DNA of 64,000 bases from Siphonodentalium dalli (taxonomy: Eukaryota; Mollusca; Scaphopoda; Gadilida; Siphonodentaliidae), in assembly GCA_032622095.1 (NCBI GenBank), contig CP136065.1:248867474-248931473 (forward strand), written 5' to 3'. The notes below the pieces were generated by a model, which worked only from the letters and a program-made list of their open reading frames with translations, was not told where the DNA came from and did not search any database. Made by a program: the position numbers and the translations under genes. Below are positions 3,038 to 47,906 of this stretch, piece after piece (position 1 is the first letter of the stretch; each line of letters starts with the position of its first letter).

Positions 3038-3254
3038 TACAGTAATGCCCTAAATAATCGACTCCTTAACCACAGCAGAATTATGGGTAACTTTCCAGGA
3101 TTTAGTCAGAAATATCGCTTGTTGCCATTCATCAGAAAGCTCTCATTGAGAGCTTTCCGTTGAATGGCAACAAGCCATATTTCCGACTAAATCCTGAAAA
3201 ATTACCAATAATTCTGTTGTGGTTAAGGAGTCGATTATTTAGGGCATTACTGTA
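3038..3254. mobile_element. Family A MITE, copy 3 (full length)
   Basis: Complete palindrome starting TA-cagtaatgccctaaataat and ending ggcattactg-TA. The two ~105-bp arms are near-perfect inverted copies meeting at agctctcattgagagct. TA flanks on both sides fit a Tc1/mariner-type target duplication. No transposase is present. Confidence 0.92.
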
Positions 3255-3579
3255 TATATAATTACTCTGGATACAGGACTCGTCTGTACTAACTACTGGA
3301 AGTCATGGACACTCTTGTGAAACCTTGTCTGACACTGAAGTATCAAACCATCAATAAATAATGTGGTATGCTGATCATGCATCTACCATGTACATGCTGT
3401 AAAGCTGAAAGCTGTTGATGTTTTCCATTTTCTTATTGTATGGAAATCAATATGACATGACAGTATTTTAATAGTTACTATCAAAAGAAAACAGTTCTCT
3501 GGTGGACAAGAGTAACATCTTTTAAAAGTGTATTGGCTTATATTGTGTGGATCAATACAATTAATGTAAAGTTATGTGG

Positions 3580-4590: not shown

Positions 4591-4614
4591 ACTTAAGTAT
4601 CTTATTGGGACTAT

Positions 4615-4835
4615 TACAGTAATGCTCTAATTAATCGACCTCTTAACCACAGCAGAATTATGGGTAACTTTTCAGGATAAATTTAGTCGGAAATATGGCT
4701 TGTTGCCATTCTTCCAAAAGCTCTCGGGAAGAGCTTTCCGATGAATGGCAACAAGCCATATTTCCGACTAAATCCTGAAAAGTTACCCATAATTCTGCTG
4801 TGGTTAAAGAGTTGATTACTTAGAGCATTACTGTA
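4615..4835. mobile_element. Family A MITE, copy 4 (full length)
   Basis: Full palindrome between TA dinucleotides, starting cagtaatgctctaattaatc. The left arm has a few extra bases (aggataaatttagtcgg) compared with other copies; the same extra bases occur in the copy at 36676. Confidence 0.92.
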
Positions 4836-7374: not shown

Positions 7375-7832
7375 TACAGCTGATTTCATGTTGTCAGGAA
7401 ACATGAACTGAACAAGATCTGAATTACAATAAATTCATCATTGACACACATTGATGTGTGCATGACTTATAACTGAGATAATTACAAGCATAATGACAAA
7501 CCTTTTAATAGGGAGTCCTTTCAATCCACACATATTGGCTGTTAACATGTTATGAAATAAAATAATATGCAACTGGCATCCACCTGTTAAGATGTGAGAG
7601 AAGGCATATGTGCTGAGTACTAATGGAATCACAGGATAAGTGGATCCATGAAGGTTACATGTATACAACAGAAATCATTAGGATGTCATGGCCAGCACAG
7701 CTCACAAAACTGGGAAGAGAGCACATGTTTCATGTGGATGCCACAATGTACTCTCAATGTACTGCAAGAGATCAAGGACCTGGCTTGAAGCCAGTTACAT
7801 TTTGTATATCAGGGTCATGGCTTGAAGCCAGT
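7375..7832. other. Unassigned stretch with a short duplication
   Basis: The motif ggcttgaagccagttaca occurs at 7782-7799 and again at 7820-7836, where family A copy 5 begins within it. Nothing else recognised. Confidence 0.5.
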
Positions 7833-8048
7833 TACAGTAATGCTCTAATTAATCGACCTCTTAACCACAGCAGAATTATGGGTAACTTTTCAGGATTTAG
7901 TCAGAAATATGGCTTGTTGCCATTCATCGGAAAGCTCTCACGAGAGCTTTCCGATGAATGGCAACAAGCCATATTTCCGACTAAATCCTGAAAAGTTACC
8001 CATAATTCTGCTGTGGTTAAGAGGTCGATTAATTAGAGCATTACTGTA
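7833..8048. mobile_element. Family A MITE, copy 5 (reference-like)
   Basis: Full palindrome between TA dinucleotides. The arms meet at agctctcacgagagct. This copy is close to consensus and served as the reference for comparing copy 13. Confidence 0.93.
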
Positions 8049-8771
8049 TATCAGGGTCACTATCCTCTCATAGACTTTGATGCTGTTAACCCTTCAATGA
8101 CTGGAGCTTCCTGAAATTTTGCGAAAACCCTGTGTCAAAGAATTTCTTTTATATATACGAGTCTCCCATATGGAGCCTCGCACCATATAATAGAATATAT
8201 TGGCCTAACAATATTTACCTTGACCTTGTAAGCCAGTGCATTCTCATATATATGAATTCTTTATTTTTACTTGAGTTACAGCCATTTTTCGACTTAGAAT
8301 TTGCCAGGTTTCATAACATTTTGGTTTCTGACTGATAACCATAGTTTGCATTATTAAGAAGCCCTTTTCACAACTTAATTTCACCTGATTTAATAACAAC
8401 CATTATAAGTTAACTAACATGCGTATTTAGCCATGCCCAGCAATGCTCTTGTCACCTCTGTTTACGAAAACCCTGTGCCAATGTATTCTCTTTTATATGC
8501 AAGTCTCCCATAAGGAGACTCACATATATAAGAGAATACATTGGCCTAACAATATTTACCTTGGCCTTGTAAACCAGTGCATTCTCTTATATATATGAGT
8601 ATACCTATGGGAGACTCATATATATAAGAGATTATTATCCATCCCTTAACTAACACCGTTTCCGATTGGGCAAAAGCCGCCACGTGATAGTCCTGGAAAA
8701 AGTAATATTGGACGCCCGAATGTCATATTGGACTCCCAAGTGTGCAATATGACTTTTTTATCGGGACTCTG

Positions 8772-8779: not shown

Positions 8780-9023
8780 CGAATTAACTTTTGCGAAATG
8801 AATCGGTGAAAGTGTGATGCGCGCGCAACACTGGTGAATTAGCAGACGTTTCACTTCCGCATTGAGTTTTGTTTTTCATTTCCGTGTTTACTGTTCCAAA
8901 TTATGCTTTCTGATGATCAATACAGGCTTTAATAGAGAATTAAGTGCCGACAAATACCAAAAGTAACCACTAAAGTTGTATTCCCAAAATTTGGATAAAC
9001 ATACAGATGGATAATAAAAATGT

Positions 9024-9191
9024 CATTATACAATGTTGTGTACATTATGAGTTTTTCTTGTACTCGTCCAGGTTGTGGTGAAAAGTCATATTGGACTCGA
9101 CACTGCATGCGTGTCTCGTCCAATATGACTTTTCACCACAACCTGGACTCGTACAAGAAAAACACATACTGTACACAACATTGTATAATAA
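9024..9191. repeat. Imperfect palindrome (~168 bp)
   Basis: The left arm (attatacaatgttgtgtac ... gtggtgaaaagtcatattgg) is the complement of the right arm (ccaatatgacttttcacc ... gtacacaacattgtataat). Centre near ctgcatgcgtg. Confidence 0.88.
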
Positions 9192-9432: not shown

Positions 9433-9627
9433 TACAGTAATGCTCTAATTAATCGACCTCTTAAACACAGCAGAATTATGGGTAACTTTTCAGGATTTAG
9501 TCGGAAATATGGCTTGTGGCGAGAGCTTTCCGATGAATGGCAACAAGCCATATTTCCGACTAAATCCTGAAAAGTTACCCATAATTCTGCTGTGGTTAAG
9601 AGGTCGATTAATTAGAGCATTACTGTA
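9433..9627. mobile_element. Family A MITE, copy 6 (small central deletion)
   Basis: TA-flanked palindrome. The centre is missing part of the left arm (gcttgtggcgagagctttcc), which removes the usual ttgccattcatcgg. Confidence 0.9.
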
Positions 9628-10035
9628 TTTGGCAATAAATTCCAATATATGAATGACTACAAAGAGGCCCATGACATTACCGGTAACTTCTTTCAATTGT
9701 TTTACTCTGGGTCGCATATGTCACACGCATAAGTTCAGTGATAATTTAACCCTTTTATGACGGGAGCTGCACTGGTGCAGCATTAAATATCCTGTGCATT
9801 CTCTTATAAATAAGAGTCTCCCACAGGGAGCCTCGTATATATAAGAGAATTCACTGGCCTACACGGTCAAGGTAAATATTGGAAGGCCAATGTATTCTCT
9901 TATATGTGAGACTCCTTATAGGAGACTTGCATATTAAAGAGAATACATTGGTACAGGGTTTTAGTAAACAGAGGTGACAAGAGCATCGCTGGCCATGGCT
10001 AAATATGCCTGTTAGTTAACGTATAATGGTTGTTA

Positions 10036-10697: not shown

Positions 10698-10900
10698 TAC
10701 AGTAATGCCCAAAGTAATCGACCTCTTAACCAAAGCAGAATTATGGGTAACTTTTCAGGATTTAGTCGGAAATATGGCTTGTTACCATTCATCGGAAAGG
10801 TCTCGCCGAGAGCTTTCCGATGAATGGCAACAAGCCATCCTGAAAAGTTACCCATAATTCTGCTTTGGTTAAGAGGTCGATTACTTAGGGCGTTTCTGTA
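10698..10900. mobile_element. Family A MITE, copy 7 (empty site present in window)
   Basis: Inserted in gaaaaatggctg-TA-actca. The uninterrupted target gaaaaatggctgTAactcaa is found inverted at about 8268-8290. The duplication is exactly TA. The right arm lacks part of the atttccgactaa block. Confidence 0.95.
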
Positions 10901-10959
10901 ACTCATGTAAAAATAATAGAGAATTCTAGGAGCCAAAGCATTTTGTAATGAAATACTTA

Positions 10960-11345
10960 GAAAATTTGAGAGTACTTTTAATTAATTTGAGAGTACTTTT
11001 AATTAAATTTGAGAGTACTTTTAATTAATTTGAGACTTTTAATTAATTTGAGAGTACTTTTAATTAATTTGAGACTTTTAATTAATTTGAGAGTACTTTT
11101 AATTAATTTGAGACTTTTAATTAATTTGAGAGTACTTTTAATTAATTTGAGAGTACTTTTAATTAATTTGAGAGTACTTTTAATTAATTTAAGAGTACTT
11201 TTAATTAATTTAAGAGTACTTTTAATTAATTTAAGAGTAATTTTAATTACGTTTTAATTTGAGAGTACTTTTAATTACGTTTTAATTACGTTTTAATTTG
11301 AGAGTACTTTTAATTAAATTTGAGAGTACTTTTAATTAAATTTTG
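10960..11345 (+). repeat. ~20-bp AT-rich tandem array, left block
   Basis: Units of aatttgagagtacttttaat, with a shorter form lacking 'agtac' (aatttgagacttttaatt) alternating at 11020-11120. Toward the right, acgttttaatt is added. The frame open across it is a by-product of a 21-base period with no stop. Confidence 0.95.
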
Positions 11346-21614: not shown

Positions 21615-21831
21615 TACAGTAATGCCCTAAATAATCAACTCCTTAACCACAGCAGAATTATGGGTAACTTTTCAGGATTTAGTCGGAAATATGGCTTGTT
21701 GCCATTCATCGGAAAGCTCTCACTGAGAGCTTTTCGATGAATGACAACAAGCCATATTTCCAACCAAATCCTGAAAAGTTACCCATAATTCAGCTGTGGT
21801 TAAGGAGTCAATTATTTAGGGCATTACTGTA
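21615..21831. mobile_element. Family A MITE, copy 10 (full length)
   Basis: TA-flanked full palindrome. The right arm has several private changes (cattcgatgaatgacaac-like; aattcagctgtgg). Confidence 0.92.
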
Positions 21832-22241
21832 TCTCCTGTGGTGCTAGTTACTTATATAGCAAGCCTCTCTCCCATTATATTATCCCCCACCAAGTAAGAT
21901 CCATATAAGGAATAATTTACTCTACCATGATTGGGACCCCCTCCGAGATATGACCATGCTGACATTGAACCTGGAGGAAGGACCCCTACTGTGCCATAGG
22001 AGATAAAAAACCTATTAAATACACAAACAGCTATGAGACAGGCATGTTGAAGTATATTGTAATTACTATCAAGGAAGCGGAAATTATTCATATATAATGA
22101 GTGACTAGATGATGTGTTTTGGGAGCAGGGATGTGGCTAGATGGTCTCAGTTTGGAGGGTGTCCACCTTGAAATTGAAATTTCTAACTGCACCCCTCCCC
22201 TGAACCACACCAAACTCCCACGTTTGTGAAATTTATTAGCA

Positions 22242-24530: not shown

Positions 24531-24698
24531 TTAACCCTTTCAGTGCCAAGTCCGATTTTTGTATCAACCCATATTTCTTGATCATTTTTCAAATTTATTG
24601 ATCATCAATGTATCACATTATTATAATCAATAAATTTGAAAAATGATCCAGGAAATATGGGTTGATACAAAAATCGGACTTGGCACTGAAAGGGTTAA
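24531..24698. mobile_element. Family E TTAA-type MITE, copy 2 (168 bp, long inverted ends)
   Basis: TTAACCCTTTCAGTGCCAAG to CTTGGCACTGAAAGGGTTAA. The arms are complementary for about 75 bp each (aaatatgggttgatacaaaa). Its left TTAA is also the end of an M-type terminus (ggccttgagtccctttaa). A central piece (catcaatgtatcacattatt) also occurs at 39843. Confidence 0.93.
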
Positions 24699-36675: not shown

Positions 36676-36864
36676 TGACAGCAGAATTATGGGTAACTTT
36701 TCAGGATAAATTTAGTCGGAAATATGGCTTGTTGCCATTCATCGGAAAGCTCTCCCCGAGAGCTTTCCGATGAATTACAACAAGCCATATTTCCGACTAA
36801 ATCCTGAAAAGTTACCCATAATTCTGCTGTGGTTAAAGGGTCGATTACTTAGGGCGTTACTGTA
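36676..36864. mobile_element. Family A MITE, copy 12 (left end missing)
   Basis: The left arm starts at cagcagaattatggg. The right arm is complete to ggcgttactgta. tatatattgtgacag borders both sides (36661-36681 and 36864-36878), so the flanking sequence is duplicated rather than only TA. Confidence 0.88.
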
Positions 36865-36879
36865 TATATTGTGACAGTG

Positions 36880-44445: not shown

Positions 44446-44829
44446 TTATGGACCTATATAATTTGGGTAGTCTAACAAACTCGCATTTTCTTCTGATTCA
44501 TACTCATTTTGAAAATCATCGTTTAATGTAAAGGGGTTTGTTAGCAGTTGTTTCATGTTTGGCAGATCTAAGTGATTGACATTTTGTTTCATGTCATATA
44601 TTGCTAGCTTGAAGAGAGCTTCTTCTTCAATATGATTGAAGGGGAAGACTTCTTGAATACAGTGGTAGCAGAACCAAGGTGTGTTGTCTTCATCAAGTTT
44701 TCGTAGATCAGTTTTATTTAGCTTAGAGCATTTCAAATGAATCCACTGGTCACACAGGTCACATCCTAGAGCATCTTGGTTGTTTCTTACAGATTTCTTG
44801 CAGGTTGAGCATGGATACTTTATTGGCAT
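44446..44829 (-). CDS. Orphan PHD-finger ORF of LINE type (127 aa, partial)
   Basis: The 127-residue frame begins MPIKYPCSTCKK. Residues 7-56 form a C4HC3 PHD finger with Zn ligands visible in CSTC, CDLC, IHLKC and CYHC. It is followed by FPFNHIEEEALFKL. PHD fingers of this form (CxxC...WIHLKC...WFCYHC) stand at the N-terminus of many LINE-encoded proteins of marine invertebrates, where they may guide chromatin binding; that role is known only for PHD domains in general. After residue ~80 the sequence is acidic and ends YPNYIGP without reaching endonuclease or RT motifs, so this is probably a stranded N-terminal piece. The start is the only in-frame ATG upstream of the first cysteine. ORF1 lies 2 kb upstream on the same strand. 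A host PHD gene fragment is less likely but not excluded. Confidence 0.65.
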   Translation of the reverse strand: MPIKYPCSTCKKSVRNNQDALGCDLCDQWIHLKCSKLNKTDLRKLDEDNTPWFCYHCIQEVFPFNHIEEEALFKLAIYDMKQNVNHLDLPNMKQLLTNPFTLNDDFQNEYESEENASLLDYPNYIGP

Positions 44830-44988
44830 TTAGTTATTGGTGGGGTGGGGGGTGTGGGGTTGGCTTTGGGTATGGTATAGAGAAAAATAGAAAGGAAGTT
44901 TAAGAGATGGTGCAGTTGGATGAGGTTTCCAACATAAATCAGTGGTTGGCAGTCAATGTAATCACTTTACCAATAAATGTATTGTTGT

Positions 44989-45202
44989 TACAGTAATGTT
45001 CTAATTACTCGACCCCCAACACAGCAGACCCATGGGCAACCCCTCAGGACCCACTCGAAAACATGGCCCGCCACCACTCATCGGGAAGCTCTCGGGAGGG
45101 CTTTCCAATGATTGGCAACAAGCCACATCCCCGACCAAATCCCGAAAAGCCACCCACAACTCGGCCGCGCCTAAGGAGTCGATCAATCAGAGCAATACTG
45201 TA
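44989..45202 (-). mobile_element. Family A MITE, copy 13, with strand-biased T-to-C hypermutation
   Basis: TA-flanked, full length, and clearly family A (cagtaatgttctaatta ... cagagcaatactg). Against copy 5 it has about 30 T-to-C changes on the plus strand, spread over both arms (gtaacttttc to gcaacccctc; gaaaagttaccc to gaaaagccaccc). There are only about two A-to-G, one C-to-T and three G-to-A. Flanks are ordinary AT-rich sequence. Because the element is palindromic, one-sided change implies action on a single strand or RNA: the minus-strand transcript would show A-to-G. Confidence 0.9.
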
Positions 45203-46848
45203 TTTATGGGCCAGTAACGGCCTGATCTTTGTACGATAAATTGATTTGAATGTAAATTATACTTGAATGGAGATATGGTAATAGATACTGAATTTTTGTT
45301 TTTGTTAAATGGAGTTCTTGGAGTCATATATCAGTAGTTAAAACCGCGGTACCATTATGCAATGTTGATATTATATTGGTTTAGTTTTTTATATAGGAAT
45401 ATAGTACCGGTACCGTAATGTGATCTTCAACTGTGTTTATAAAGCTATAGGCTATTTATCCATTTAAGAATATGGTAAACATAGTTTTTAATTGTTTGAA
45501 TATTTATACTTGGGCTGTAGTCAATAGCTGAGTTAGACAAAACTTTAGGGTCAATCTTGAGCCTGGTTATTCTATTTATATTACAGTGGTAGAATGTGAA
45601 GGCTATATCATTTTATATAAAGGGTTATATAATCTCTGGGTCAGGTTAGATCCTGATCATGATTCGTTTTTATATTATTCATTAAGTGTCTTTATCATCT
45701 GAGTTACATGTAAGGGTGGTAGACAATACAGTGGTACAAGTTTGTACATGTATTGCACTGTTTATAATGATTCAAATTAATCATTTTGTTAAATTGTTCT
45801 ACAGAAAGCAGCTTTACAGGAAGCAGCGACGAGTGATTTTCTAAGTTTAATTAATCAGGTTTTAGATTTCTAAGTTTAATTGAAAAGTTTTTATACCTAT
45901 TTTTTATGCAAGACTTAATATACCCAGTATGTATCGAAGGGCACTACCAGATGATGTTCTGGAAGTGTTCTAGGTACATACTAGGTAGATCAGTATTGAG
46001 AATGATTAGATGACGTTCTTGGATTCATGCAGTCATGTGTCAGGTATAATAAAGCATGCAGACAAATAGATAAGACAGACAAATAGGTAAGGGTTATGCA
46101 TTCATAGATAATTAATGTTCATGCAAATAAAATGTTATAACCTGTCATCTTAGTGTCATGCATAAATGTTTTACTAGTTATTCTGGACTACACATACATT
46201 TATAAACAAATAATCATAAAGGTGTAATATGGCATAAAGATAGTATAGATAATTATCATGCAAGGCAACATATATAATATCATAACATTATCATTGGGTT
46301 CATGCAGTTGTAATGTATTTCATGCATTGTGTTAATCTATTCTTCGTGGTGTTGTTGAGGGCATAGTTATTAGAATTATTTACAATGTTTCTGATATACA
46401 ATATATCTTTATACGACTCATATGAATTAAATACTATATTCATGTGAAAAGATGACCTGATACACAGTTAGTTCTGCTGATGAAAGACTGACTGAGTGAG
46501 CAATAAGTCACTCGTGTTTTATGACTTATCTATATTGAAGAAGTGAAGAGCATGCAAGCTACATAAAAGTATACATAATGTATACTACTTACAGATAGAG
46601 AGTATGATTCAGCATTTTATAAGGATAGGGGTTCATGTATAGTCACATGATTTATGTTCTATTCATGCGATAAGAGTACATGCAGAAGTAGCAATAGATA
46701 GCAGTAATATTTTGTTATATATAGCACACCAAGGTAGACAAACATACAATGACAAACAAACATATATACATGGGAACAAACAAGATCATGCAAGAAAATG
46801 CAGGAACATGCAAGAAGACACATGATTGCATGTTGGTTATCCTTGACC
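45203..46848 (-). other. Spacer between LINE ORFs, rich in TGCATG on the minus strand
   Basis: No ORF2, endonuclease or RT motifs were seen in this spacer on the minus strand. Between 46026 and 46812 the plus strand carries eleven catgca words (46026, 46055, 46120, 46157, 46257, 46301, 46321, 46551, 46679, 46787, 46807). These read TGCATG in the sense of the flanking ORFs. Confidence 0.7.
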
Positions 46849-47652
46849 TCAGAGTTTCTCGAGGTCACTGAGTTTCCAAATGAGTGACTTTTTGTCATCG
46901 TGTGTTAATGCAATAATCTTGCCGTCCATAGTCCAAGAGTTTTTAACATTTGGATGTTTGTGGACTTCCTTGAGAAGCTCCATGTTTTTCGCGGTCAGGC
47001 TTTCTGTTATAACAAGTTTAGTGTCATTCCCGAAAAGCTTACAGTTTTTTAAAGCACGTTTCGCCATGAAGAGTTGATGTTTCTGATCATGTCGCGTTAA
47101 TCTGACAATTATCGGTCTAGGCCTTTGTTTACTTTTGTTTTTGTCAAACTTTCCAAGGCGATGAGAGCGGCCTATGTCATTTTTGTCCGTTTCCACATTA
47201 AGCGCTTTTTTAAATATATTCAAAGCTTTCTCATTAGTGTTTTCATCCTTTTCCTCTGGTACACCATGAATCAGAAGGCAGTTACGTCTACTGTATTGCT
47301 CAAGATTGTTCATTTCAAGTTTTAGTTTTGCATTCTCCTCCTTGATTTTGCTCAATTCTTTCTCTACTTTGTCAAGCCTTTCCACAATTGAATTATCAGT
47401 GGATTGATTTACTGATTCGCTCACAGATTTTGCAAACTGTTCATTTCCTATTAGAGCTTTTACAATGGTGCACTTGGTGGTCTCGTTGGAAATTATTTCA
47501 CTGACAATTTTATCTGCCAAATTTTGAACGAGGATTTTTAGAATGTTGTCATCCTTTAATAGAGCTTGTGTGATAGTCTTTCGTAGTTCAGACTCACTTT
47601 GAGTGGGATCTGGCTTTGTCGCACTGGATGACGTTCTTCTACTGGAAGGCAT
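46849..47652 (-). CDS. LINE ORF1-like protein (267 aa, intact frame)
   Basis: This is a nucleic-acid-binding protein of a non-LTR retrotransposon, expected to coat element RNA in a cytoplasmic particle. The start is the first ATG (MPSSRRTSSSATKP), a basic/serine-rich head. Residues ~30-85 are helical (ALLKDDNILKILVQNLADKI). Residues ~88-118 are a charged coiled coil (RLDKVEKELSKIKEENAKL). The L1-ORF1-like RRM region begins LEQYSRRNCLLIHGVPEE and continues IGRSHRLGKF ... RPIIVRLTRHDQKH ... ITESLTAKNMELLKEV. The C-terminus carries NSWTMDGKIIALTHDDKKSL. The length fits compact ORF1 proteins. The frame is uninterrupted, unlike every other retroelement piece here, implying a young copy. No ORF2 follows on this strand. 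Clade assignment (CR1/L2-like versus Tx1-like) is not decided. Confidence 0.85.
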   Translation of the reverse strand: MPSSRRTSSSATKPDPTQSESELRKTITQALLKDDNILKILVQNLADKIVSEIISNETTKCTIVKALIGNEQFAKSVSESVNQSTDNSIVERLDKVEKELSKIKEENAKLKLEMNNLEQYSRRNCLLIHGVPEEKDENTNEKALNIFKKALNVETDKNDIGRSHRLGKFDKNKSKQRPRPIIVRLTRHDQKHQLFMAKRALKNCKLFGNDTKLVITESLTAKNMELLKEVHKHPNVKNSWTMDGKIIALTHDDKKSLIWKLSDLEKL

Positions 47653-47906
47653 AATTATTTTGAAAGAAATTCAGTTCAATTCAAAAACAACTTCCCTATC
47701 TTCGTGGTATAACAACAGTTGAATCAGTTAATCGATAATTTTACAGGTTTATTGGGTTTTTAAAGTTTTACGGTCTATCAAATATATGCAGGTGGTTCAT
47801 ATTGGAAGATTACGAATACTTGTCTCCGTCTAGATCTTTCAGTAATTCATATTTTTGTGATGTTTTGACTGCCAAATTTTTCCGTTTTTTCACATCGTAA
47901 ATACAG
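47653..47906. other. Junction between oppositely oriented LINE pieces
   Basis: On the minus strand this is the 5' leader of ORF1; on the plus strand it immediately precedes the ORF2 tail. No tandem repeat or terminal signal is recognised. Confidence 0.5.

What the first reader, a model, noticed from the sequence alone, without database searches (positions are those of the whole stretch)
44989..45202. A palindromic MITE that looks like an RNA-edited copy returned to the genome
Compared with copy 5, copy 13 has about 30 T-to-C changes on the plus strand in both arms, but only about two A-to-G, and ordinary flanks. Other copies show few, unbiased changes. In a palindrome, ordinary DNA mutation should hit both strands alike. 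A-to-I editing of a minus-strand hairpin transcript would change A to G in both arms, read as T-to-C on plus. The flanking LINE ORFs (46849-47652 and 44446-44829) are also minus-sense, so the MITE may have ridden in a LINE transcript, been edited by an ADAR and been reverse-transcribed. The base pattern is seen; the mechanism is inferred.
Basis: partly seen in the sequence, partly recalled or inferred. Interest (0 to 1): 0.88.

Follow-up and report, generated by a model that had tools for sequence, protein, structure and literature searches.

The report
RNA-edited hairpins copied into the genome
A small palindromic jumping element inside a copy-and-paste element (a LINE) carries about thirty changes of one kind on one strand, as if its RNA hairpin had been edited A-to-I and then written back into DNA, and the same scar recurs at other sites in this genome.

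Summary
Against a consensus of unedited copies, window 44989-45202 has 31 T>C but 2 A>G. It is not alone: 13 insertion contexts carry such hairpins (two seen in one arm only), and a pattern scan found 28 heavily changed arms among 53,913. For ADAR editing of LINE RNA plus reverse transcription: in all 6 contexts whose LINE sense is known, the change reads A>G on the sense strand; edited fraction by RNA 5' neighbour is U .65, A .61, C .46, G .22; flanks lack the bias; the underlying palindromes are of at least four MITE subtypes; two edited copies sit at different TA sites of one LINE family, each site empty in the other; an unrelated palindrome near a third copy shows 13:0 in the same direction; A_deamin genes are present. 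Against: no unedited parent was found at the two sites tested, host sense is unknown in 7 contexts, and there are no RNA data. A new variant of a known kind: RNA hyperediting made heritable.

The parts
44989..45202 (.). Family A palindromic MITE with one-sided T>C on + (A>G on the LINE sense strand, -); TA at both ends
   Evidence: fold of the - strand -129.5 kcal/mol against -193.8 for an unedited copy and -64.5 for the + strand
44460..46739 (-). LINE copy that carries the MITE, as far as it is shared with other g1 copies within locus L002 (the right limit is the end of that locus)
   Evidence: L002 1011-3290 matches L005 1012-3291 at 98.5%; full-length g1 copies carry EEP and RVT_1 on -
44446..44829 (-). 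PHD-finger ORF of the LINE, downstream of the MITE in sense
   Evidence: Pfam PF00628 4.4e-8; 95% identical ORF in the L013 host
46849..47670 (-). ORF upstream of the MITE in sense, ORF1-like by eye (coiled coil, SRRNCLLIHGVPE motif, recalled); same LINE is inferred
   Evidence: Pfam only Lge1 below its cut-off
7831..8050 (.). Unedited family A copy used for comparison
3038..3256 (.). Unedited family A copy
4614..4835 (.). Unedited family A copy
9433..9628 (.). Unedited family A copy with internal deletion
10698..10900 (.). Unedited family A copy with internal deletion
21615..21832 (.). Unedited family A copy
36678..36866 (.). Unedited family A copy, 5' part missing
24531..24698 (.). Relative (with deletion) of the unrelated palindrome that is edited in L048:4083-4297
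   Evidence: T>C 9, A>G 0 towards the L048 copy; alignment

Best explanation
A perfectly palindromic MITE jumped (TA target) into the spacer upstream of ORF2 of an active LINE. The LINE transcript folded the insert into a hairpin of about 108 base pairs; an ADAR-type adenosine deaminase changed about half of its adenosines to inosine. The LINE reverse transcriptase read inosine as G, so a new genomic LINE copy carried A>G on its sense strand (T>C on the other), and that copy was multiplied by further retrotransposition. The window copy is one of 12 nearly full-length copies of one such LINE lineage. The same event happened independently in other LINEs. Shown here: the substitution pattern, its confinement to the hairpin, strand, neighbour preference, different MITE backgrounds, empty sites, multicopy LINE hosts, presence of the deaminase domain. 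Inferred: the enzyme, the RNA stage, and that inosine was reverse-transcribed.
For: (1) Pattern: in the 20 edited copies compared, T>C 27-34 and A>G 0-3. In the 20 fetched blind by a 5'-arm pattern, the 15 with an intact 3' arm, which the pattern did not condition on, show there T>C 10-24 and A>G 1-2. Within the elements, 471 C.A against 15 G.T mismatched pairs over 14 group consensuses; nine unedited copies 17 against 8. (2) Strand: RT or endonuclease lies on the strand on which the change reads A>G in g1, g2, g4, g5, L019, and g3 lies in the g4 LINE family: 6 of 6 contexts with known sense. (3) ADAR neighbour preference: RNA 5' neighbour U 156/241, A 184/300, C 86/187, G 40/179; by site, G 0.21 (13 sites) against 0.59 (50 sites), p = 3e-4. 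(4) Flanks unbiased: L013 to g1 fixed differences T>C 8, A>G 16; within 200 columns of the g4 and g3 sites T>C 1 and 3, C>T 4 and 4. (5) Different backgrounds and reciprocal empty TA sites of g3 and g4. (6) Among six g4 copies the hairpin has 11 C/T of 18 variable columns (218 columns), the flank 22 C/T and 21 A/G of 92 (2686 columns), so T>C differs between sister copies in the hairpin only. (7) A second, unrelated palindrome in L048 shows C.A 13, G.T 0. (8) A_deamin (PF02137) matches at four places, all 13 over the cut-off.
Against: No unedited parent at the same LINE site: all 12 g1 junction matches are edited (11 strings printed, the twelfth is L009), and all 7 full-length g4 matches are the known edited ones (40 of 852 candidates scored). 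13 of the 20 g4-junction pattern hits were not read. Host sense is unknown for g6, g7, L016, L054, L055, L056, L067; 2.5 kb beside g6 and g7 gave no RT or endonuclease. L019's RVT_1 is just under its cut-off (29.2 against 29.6 bits), though tblastn supports it. In L048 three short palindromes between the edited ones show C.A 0, 0, 1 and one long hairpin is balanced 6:5. A downstream-A preference like that of invertebrate ADARs is in the data but not significant by site (p = 0.12). A_deamin also occurs in deaminases that are not ADARs (recalled). No RNA evidence.
Confidence: 0.88

Rival explanations
1. Shared ancestry: one old C-rich, non-palindromic MITE variant spread by DNA transposition into several LINEs; no editing at each site.
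For: Edited sites overlap strongly between contexts (19-27 shared of 27-34 in pairs of the first ten groups). g6, g7, L055, L067 share one background and g1, L013, g5a, L016 another, so within each of these two sets one edited ancestor is not excluded.
Against: At least four palindromic backgrounds carry the change; g4's background is that of unedited copies 7831 and 9433. Orientation agrees with LINE sense in 6 of 6 contexts, expected 1 in 64 if random. Overlap of sites is also what one enzyme acting on one hairpin gives, and it follows the 5' neighbour. g4 sister copies still differ by T>C in the hairpin only.
Confidence: 0.07
2. Deamination of deoxyadenosine in the cDNA strand of the RNA:DNA hybrid during target-primed reverse transcription, or another strand-asymmetric DNA process such as transcription-coupled mutation.
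For: ADARs can edit the DNA strand of hybrids in model substrates (passage of PMC12925331).
Against: Hybrid editing would change A>G in the first cDNA strand, that is T>C on the LINE sense strand, the opposite of what is seen in 6 of 6; and it would not stop at the hairpin edge, as the change does.
Confidence: 0.03
3. APOBEC-type or RIP-type C>T hypermutation of a C-rich ancestor, polarity reversed.
For: C/T differences are the same letters if polarity is ignored.
Against: The family is a palindrome and unedited copies pair T with A; the edited copies keep the A partner opposite C, so the change was T>C. C>T is 0-4 in the 20 copies.
Confidence: 0.01
4. Artefact: assembly or alignment error.
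For: None found.
Against: Copies on all nine contigs agree, ungapped over most of the length.
Confidence: 0.01

Closest known systems
Hyperediting of the palindromic Harbinger repeat in Xenopus tropicalis RNA (Porath et al. 2017, PMC5625713; passages and a figure legend seen)
   Same: Palindromic DNA element of about 200 bp; 65 of 77 adenosines edited in one 221-bp repeat; G depleted upstream of edited A; A preferred downstream in invertebrates and amphibians
   Different: There the change is in RNA only; here it is in genomic DNA and inherited
[quoted passage not shown] 1994; seen only as described in PMC12925331, passage)
   Same: A-to-G changes after reverse transcription of edited RNA, including an inverted repeat with nearly half of the A changed
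   Different: Retroviruses under study, not LINEs; no recurrent genomic record in a host genome
APOBEC-edited retrotransposon copies in genomes (G-to-A clusters; Zaranek et al. 2010, PMC2873906; passages seen)
   Same: Deaminase scars fixed in retroelement copies
   Different: Other base change, acts on cDNA, not tied to hairpins. That paper saw no excess of A-to-G clusters in its high-quality DNA traces (human, Xenopus; Figure 5C legend)
[quoted passage not shown] only the reference entry seen)
   Same: Links editing enzymes and retroelements
   Different: Content not seen; from recall it treats ADAR editing of transcripts, not re-insertion of edited RNA

Membership tests
ADAR A-to-I hyperediting scar | Clusters of A>G only, on the transcribed strand | tested here: met
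   6 of 6 contexts with known LINE sense; 471 C.A against 15 G.T pairs
ADAR A-to-I hyperediting scar | Confined to double-stranded RNA | tested here: met
   Flanks unbiased; of 212 hairpins scanned, the 18 one-sided rows are 13 family A copies, one unrelated palindrome and 4 overlapping rows in an AT-rich array; 2 of the 15 whole edited family A copies in those stretches were not flagged
ADAR A-to-I hyperediting scar | 5' neighbour G disfavoured | tested here: met
   (p = 3e-4 by site)
ADAR A-to-I hyperediting scar | Invertebrate ADARs: A preferred downstream | tested here: inconclusive
   A .59, C .52, G .53, U .42; A against U p = 0.12 by site
ADAR A-to-I hyperediting scar | Deaminase encoded by the genome | tested here: met
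   PF02137, 13 matches at four places, all over cut-off; the domain is not exclusive to ADARs (recalled)
ADAR A-to-I hyperediting scar | Inosine in the RNA of these elements | not testable with these tools
   no RNA data
MITE with TA target site | Short, non-coding, inverted repeats, TA duplicated at insertion | tested here: met
   217-bp palindrome; g3 and g4 sites each empty with one TA in the other LINE copy. The superfamily was not tested
LINE (non-LTR retrotransposon) as host | Endonuclease and reverse transcriptase ORFs, multicopy | tested here: met
   RVT_1 and/or EEP in g1, g2, g4, g5, L019 (L019 just under cut-off); shared flanks in g1-g5. The clade was not determined
APOBEC or RIP hypermutation | C>T or G>A clusters | tested here: not met
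   C>T 0-4, G>A 0-5 in 20 edited copies

The most novel reading that the evidence does not exclude
Editing is a licence, not only a scar: a perfect hairpin in LINE RNA blocks the LINE (stalled reverse transcription, dicing or dsRNA sensing), and only versions that the deaminase has softened to G.U pairs multiply. LINE lineages thus inherit RNA edits and pass through repeated rounds of them, so the genome keeps a fossil record of ancient A-to-I editing in the germ line. Consistent: every LINE-borne copy read at the g1 and g4 sites is edited (12 of 12; 7 of 7), the edited sense strand still folds but at -129.5 instead of -193.8 kcal/mol, and g4 sisters carry different numbers of edits.
Probability: 0.35. 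Interest if true: 0.93.

Novelty: new variant of a known kind. Interest (0 to 1): 0.85.

Why it matters
A-to-I editing is treated as a change of RNA that dies with the RNA. Here its pattern is written into DNA at 13 insertion contexts, multiplied by LINEs. A palindrome is an ideal recorder, because the unedited arm shows what each base was, with no outgroup needed. That makes three questions testable from genomes alone: how often edited RNA is reverse-transcribed in the germ line, what the neighbour preference of ancient ADARs was, and whether editing helps retrotransposons to tolerate inserts.

Tried and rejected
One C-rich MITE subfamily: rejected as the general account by different backgrounds and orientation. 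Hybrid-DNA editing, APOBEC and RIP: rejected by polarity and hairpin restriction. The one-sided signal at window 10945-11342 is an AT-rich array with as many other mismatches, not editing. The g1 flank counts (T>C 143, A>G 102) mixed in non-homologous ends of some loci; redone with six copies and L013, without T>C excess. A mixed control pattern (A43G with T45C and T51C) was not empty: 2 matches, both with six T>C besides the one A>G, probably one more edited pair; not fetched. Hosts of g6 and g7 were looked for in 2.5 kb each, without RT or endonuclease. A genome-wide count of the second palindrome was not obtained. Print: nine searches of the paper library listed no paper on genomic LINE copies bearing ADAR scars, by title and start of abstract; of nine papers only passages were seen.

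Full report
What is there. Against eight other window copies it has 27-32 T>C on the + strand and 2-8 A>G. Against a consensus of nine unedited copies, built from both orientations, it has 31 T>C, 2 A>G, 2 C>T, 4 G>A and 8 transversions; the unedited copies have 0-1 T>C and 0-2 A>G. An unedited copy folds into an uninterrupted hairpin (-193.8 kcal/mol); the - strand of the window copy still does with G.U pairs (-129.5), the + strand hardly (-64.5). That is the signature of A>G on the - strand in both arms.

It is a copy of a copy. A search of the genome with the element plus flanks gave 12 places at 97-100% over all 291 bases, one at 91% (L013) and two truncated ones. Their flanks agree for up to 3.3 kb at 96-99%. 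The shared element is a LINE on the - strand, with PHD-finger, endonuclease and reverse transcriptase ORFs. L013 is the same LINE insertion on a diverged lineage (RT piece 95% identical) and shares 26 of the T>C sites. So the changes are older than that split, and the lineage went on being copied with the altered hairpin.

It recurs. The same search also returned copies of 83-86% that match only in the MITE. They too are one-sided, and they sit in other hosts: g2 (L017, L022, L029, L057, L063), g3 (L018, L021), g4 (L020, L023, L024, L026-L028, L058), g5 (three hairpins in one LINE copy, L046), L016, L019. As these were found with a C-rich query, I scanned with a pattern that fixes three T>C in the 5' arm and leaves the 3' arm free. 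It matches 28 of the 53,913 arms of the open pattern; the reversed control gives 0. Seven of the 28 were held; 20 of the other 21 were fetched (C6:53017815 was not). In the 15 with an intact 3' arm, that arm shows T>C 10-24 and A>G 1-2; the other five have lost it. New contexts: g6 (five copies), g7 (eight, three of them without the intact 3' arm), and L054, L055, L056, L067. L067 has 49 T>C and 1 A>G. L054 and L056 are seen in the 5' arm only, and L056 is the weakest (10 unconditioned T>C, 3 A>G). That makes 13 contexts.

Strand. The palindrome can lie either way round, so the C strand marks the direction of the process. In g1, g2, g4 and L019 the C strand is + and the LINE reads -; in g5 the change reads A>G on + and the LINE reads +. 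g3 lies in the same LINE family as g4. So A>G is on the LINE sense strand in 6 of 6 contexts; L019 rests on an RVT_1 match just under cut-off plus tblastn matches. For the other 7 the host sense is unknown; 2.5 kb beside g6 and g7 showed no LINE enzyme.

Independence. Because A stays opposite each new C, each element shows its own earlier state. Read that way, the palindromes beneath the edits differ: g3 is the consensus; g4 has T12, C26, T27 like unedited copies 7831 and 9433; g2 has G17, T28; g1, L013, g5a and L016 share T12, A33; g6, g7, L055 and L067 share G17, T22, C26, A27, T54 (A14 where readable). The last two types were not seen unedited among my nine copies, and within each of these two sets a common edited ancestor is not excluded. 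g3 and g4 occupy different TA sites of one LINE family, and each LINE copy has the other's site empty.

Chemistry. Over 14 group consensuses there are 471 C.A pairs and 15 G.T; nine unedited copies have 17 and 8. The edited fraction by RNA 5' neighbour is U 156/241, A 184/300, C 86/187, G 40/179. Cells are not independent; by site, 13 sites after G average 0.21 and 50 others 0.59 (p = 3e-4). Downstream A is highest and U lowest, in the direction reported for invertebrate ADARs (Porath et al. 2017, passages), but not significantly (p = 0.12). A_deamin genes are present at four places.

Limits of the bias. Fixed differences between L013 and six g1 copies outside the MITE are T>C 8, A>G 16. Near the g3 and g4 sites T>C does not exceed C>T. 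Among six g4 copies, 11 of 18 variable hairpin columns are C/T, while the flank has 22 C/T and 21 A/G of 92: sister copies differ in how many T>C they carry, as further or separate rounds of editing would give. In g1 there is no such excess.

Not only family A. A scan of hairpins in the window and L031-L050 (212 rows, some overlapping) flagged 18 rows: 13 family A copies, four overlapping rows of an AT-rich array, and an unrelated 215-bp palindrome at L048:4083-4297 with C.A 13, G.T 0, the same direction as the edited family A copy 1.7 kb away. A third hairpin there, L048:6318-6571, shows 9:1, but three short palindromes show 0, 0, 1 and one long one 6:5. The remaining 194 rows are nearly balanced, 742 to 651.

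What is missing. No unedited parent was seen at the g1 junction (12 matches, all edited) or among full-length matches of the g4 site (7, all known edited, 40 of 852 candidates scored). Thirteen g4-junction pattern hits were not read. Either parents are lost, or perfect hairpins do not multiply, which is the licence idea of the novel case.

Known ground. RNA hyperediting of palindromic repeats, A-to-G hypermutated retroviruses and C-to-U scars in retrotransposons are known, from passages seen. Nine library searches listed no report of ADAR scars in genomic LINE copies by title and abstract start; subscription papers are not in that library. I therefore call it a new variant of a known kind.

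Noticed in passing
L046:8174-8391, 8872-9089, 9560-9758: Three edited family A hairpins about 690-700 bases apart inside one LINE copy, all A>G on +, with different edit sets; perhaps a tandem repeat of a LINE spacer unit.
   Followed up: partly
L048:4083-4297 (relative at window 24531-24698): A second, unrelated palindromic element with one-sided T>C beside an edited family A copy.
   Followed up: partly
L067 (G000:C9:4319953-4320212): The most heavily changed copy: 49 T>C, 1 A>G; host unknown.
   Followed up: no
G000:C1:2168851 and C1:4856604: Two arms with six T>C and one A>G found by the mixed control pattern; probably a further edited context.
   Followed up: no
g1, g2, g4, g5, L019 hosts: The inserts lie upstream of the endonuclease-RT ORF, not inside it: only inserts that spare ORF2 would be copied on.
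   Followed up: partly
window 10945-11342: AT-rich direct repeat array that mimics a one-sided hairpin in automatic scans.
   Followed up: yes
window 44446-44829 and L031:8990-9454: PHD-finger ORF within the LINE.
   Followed up: no
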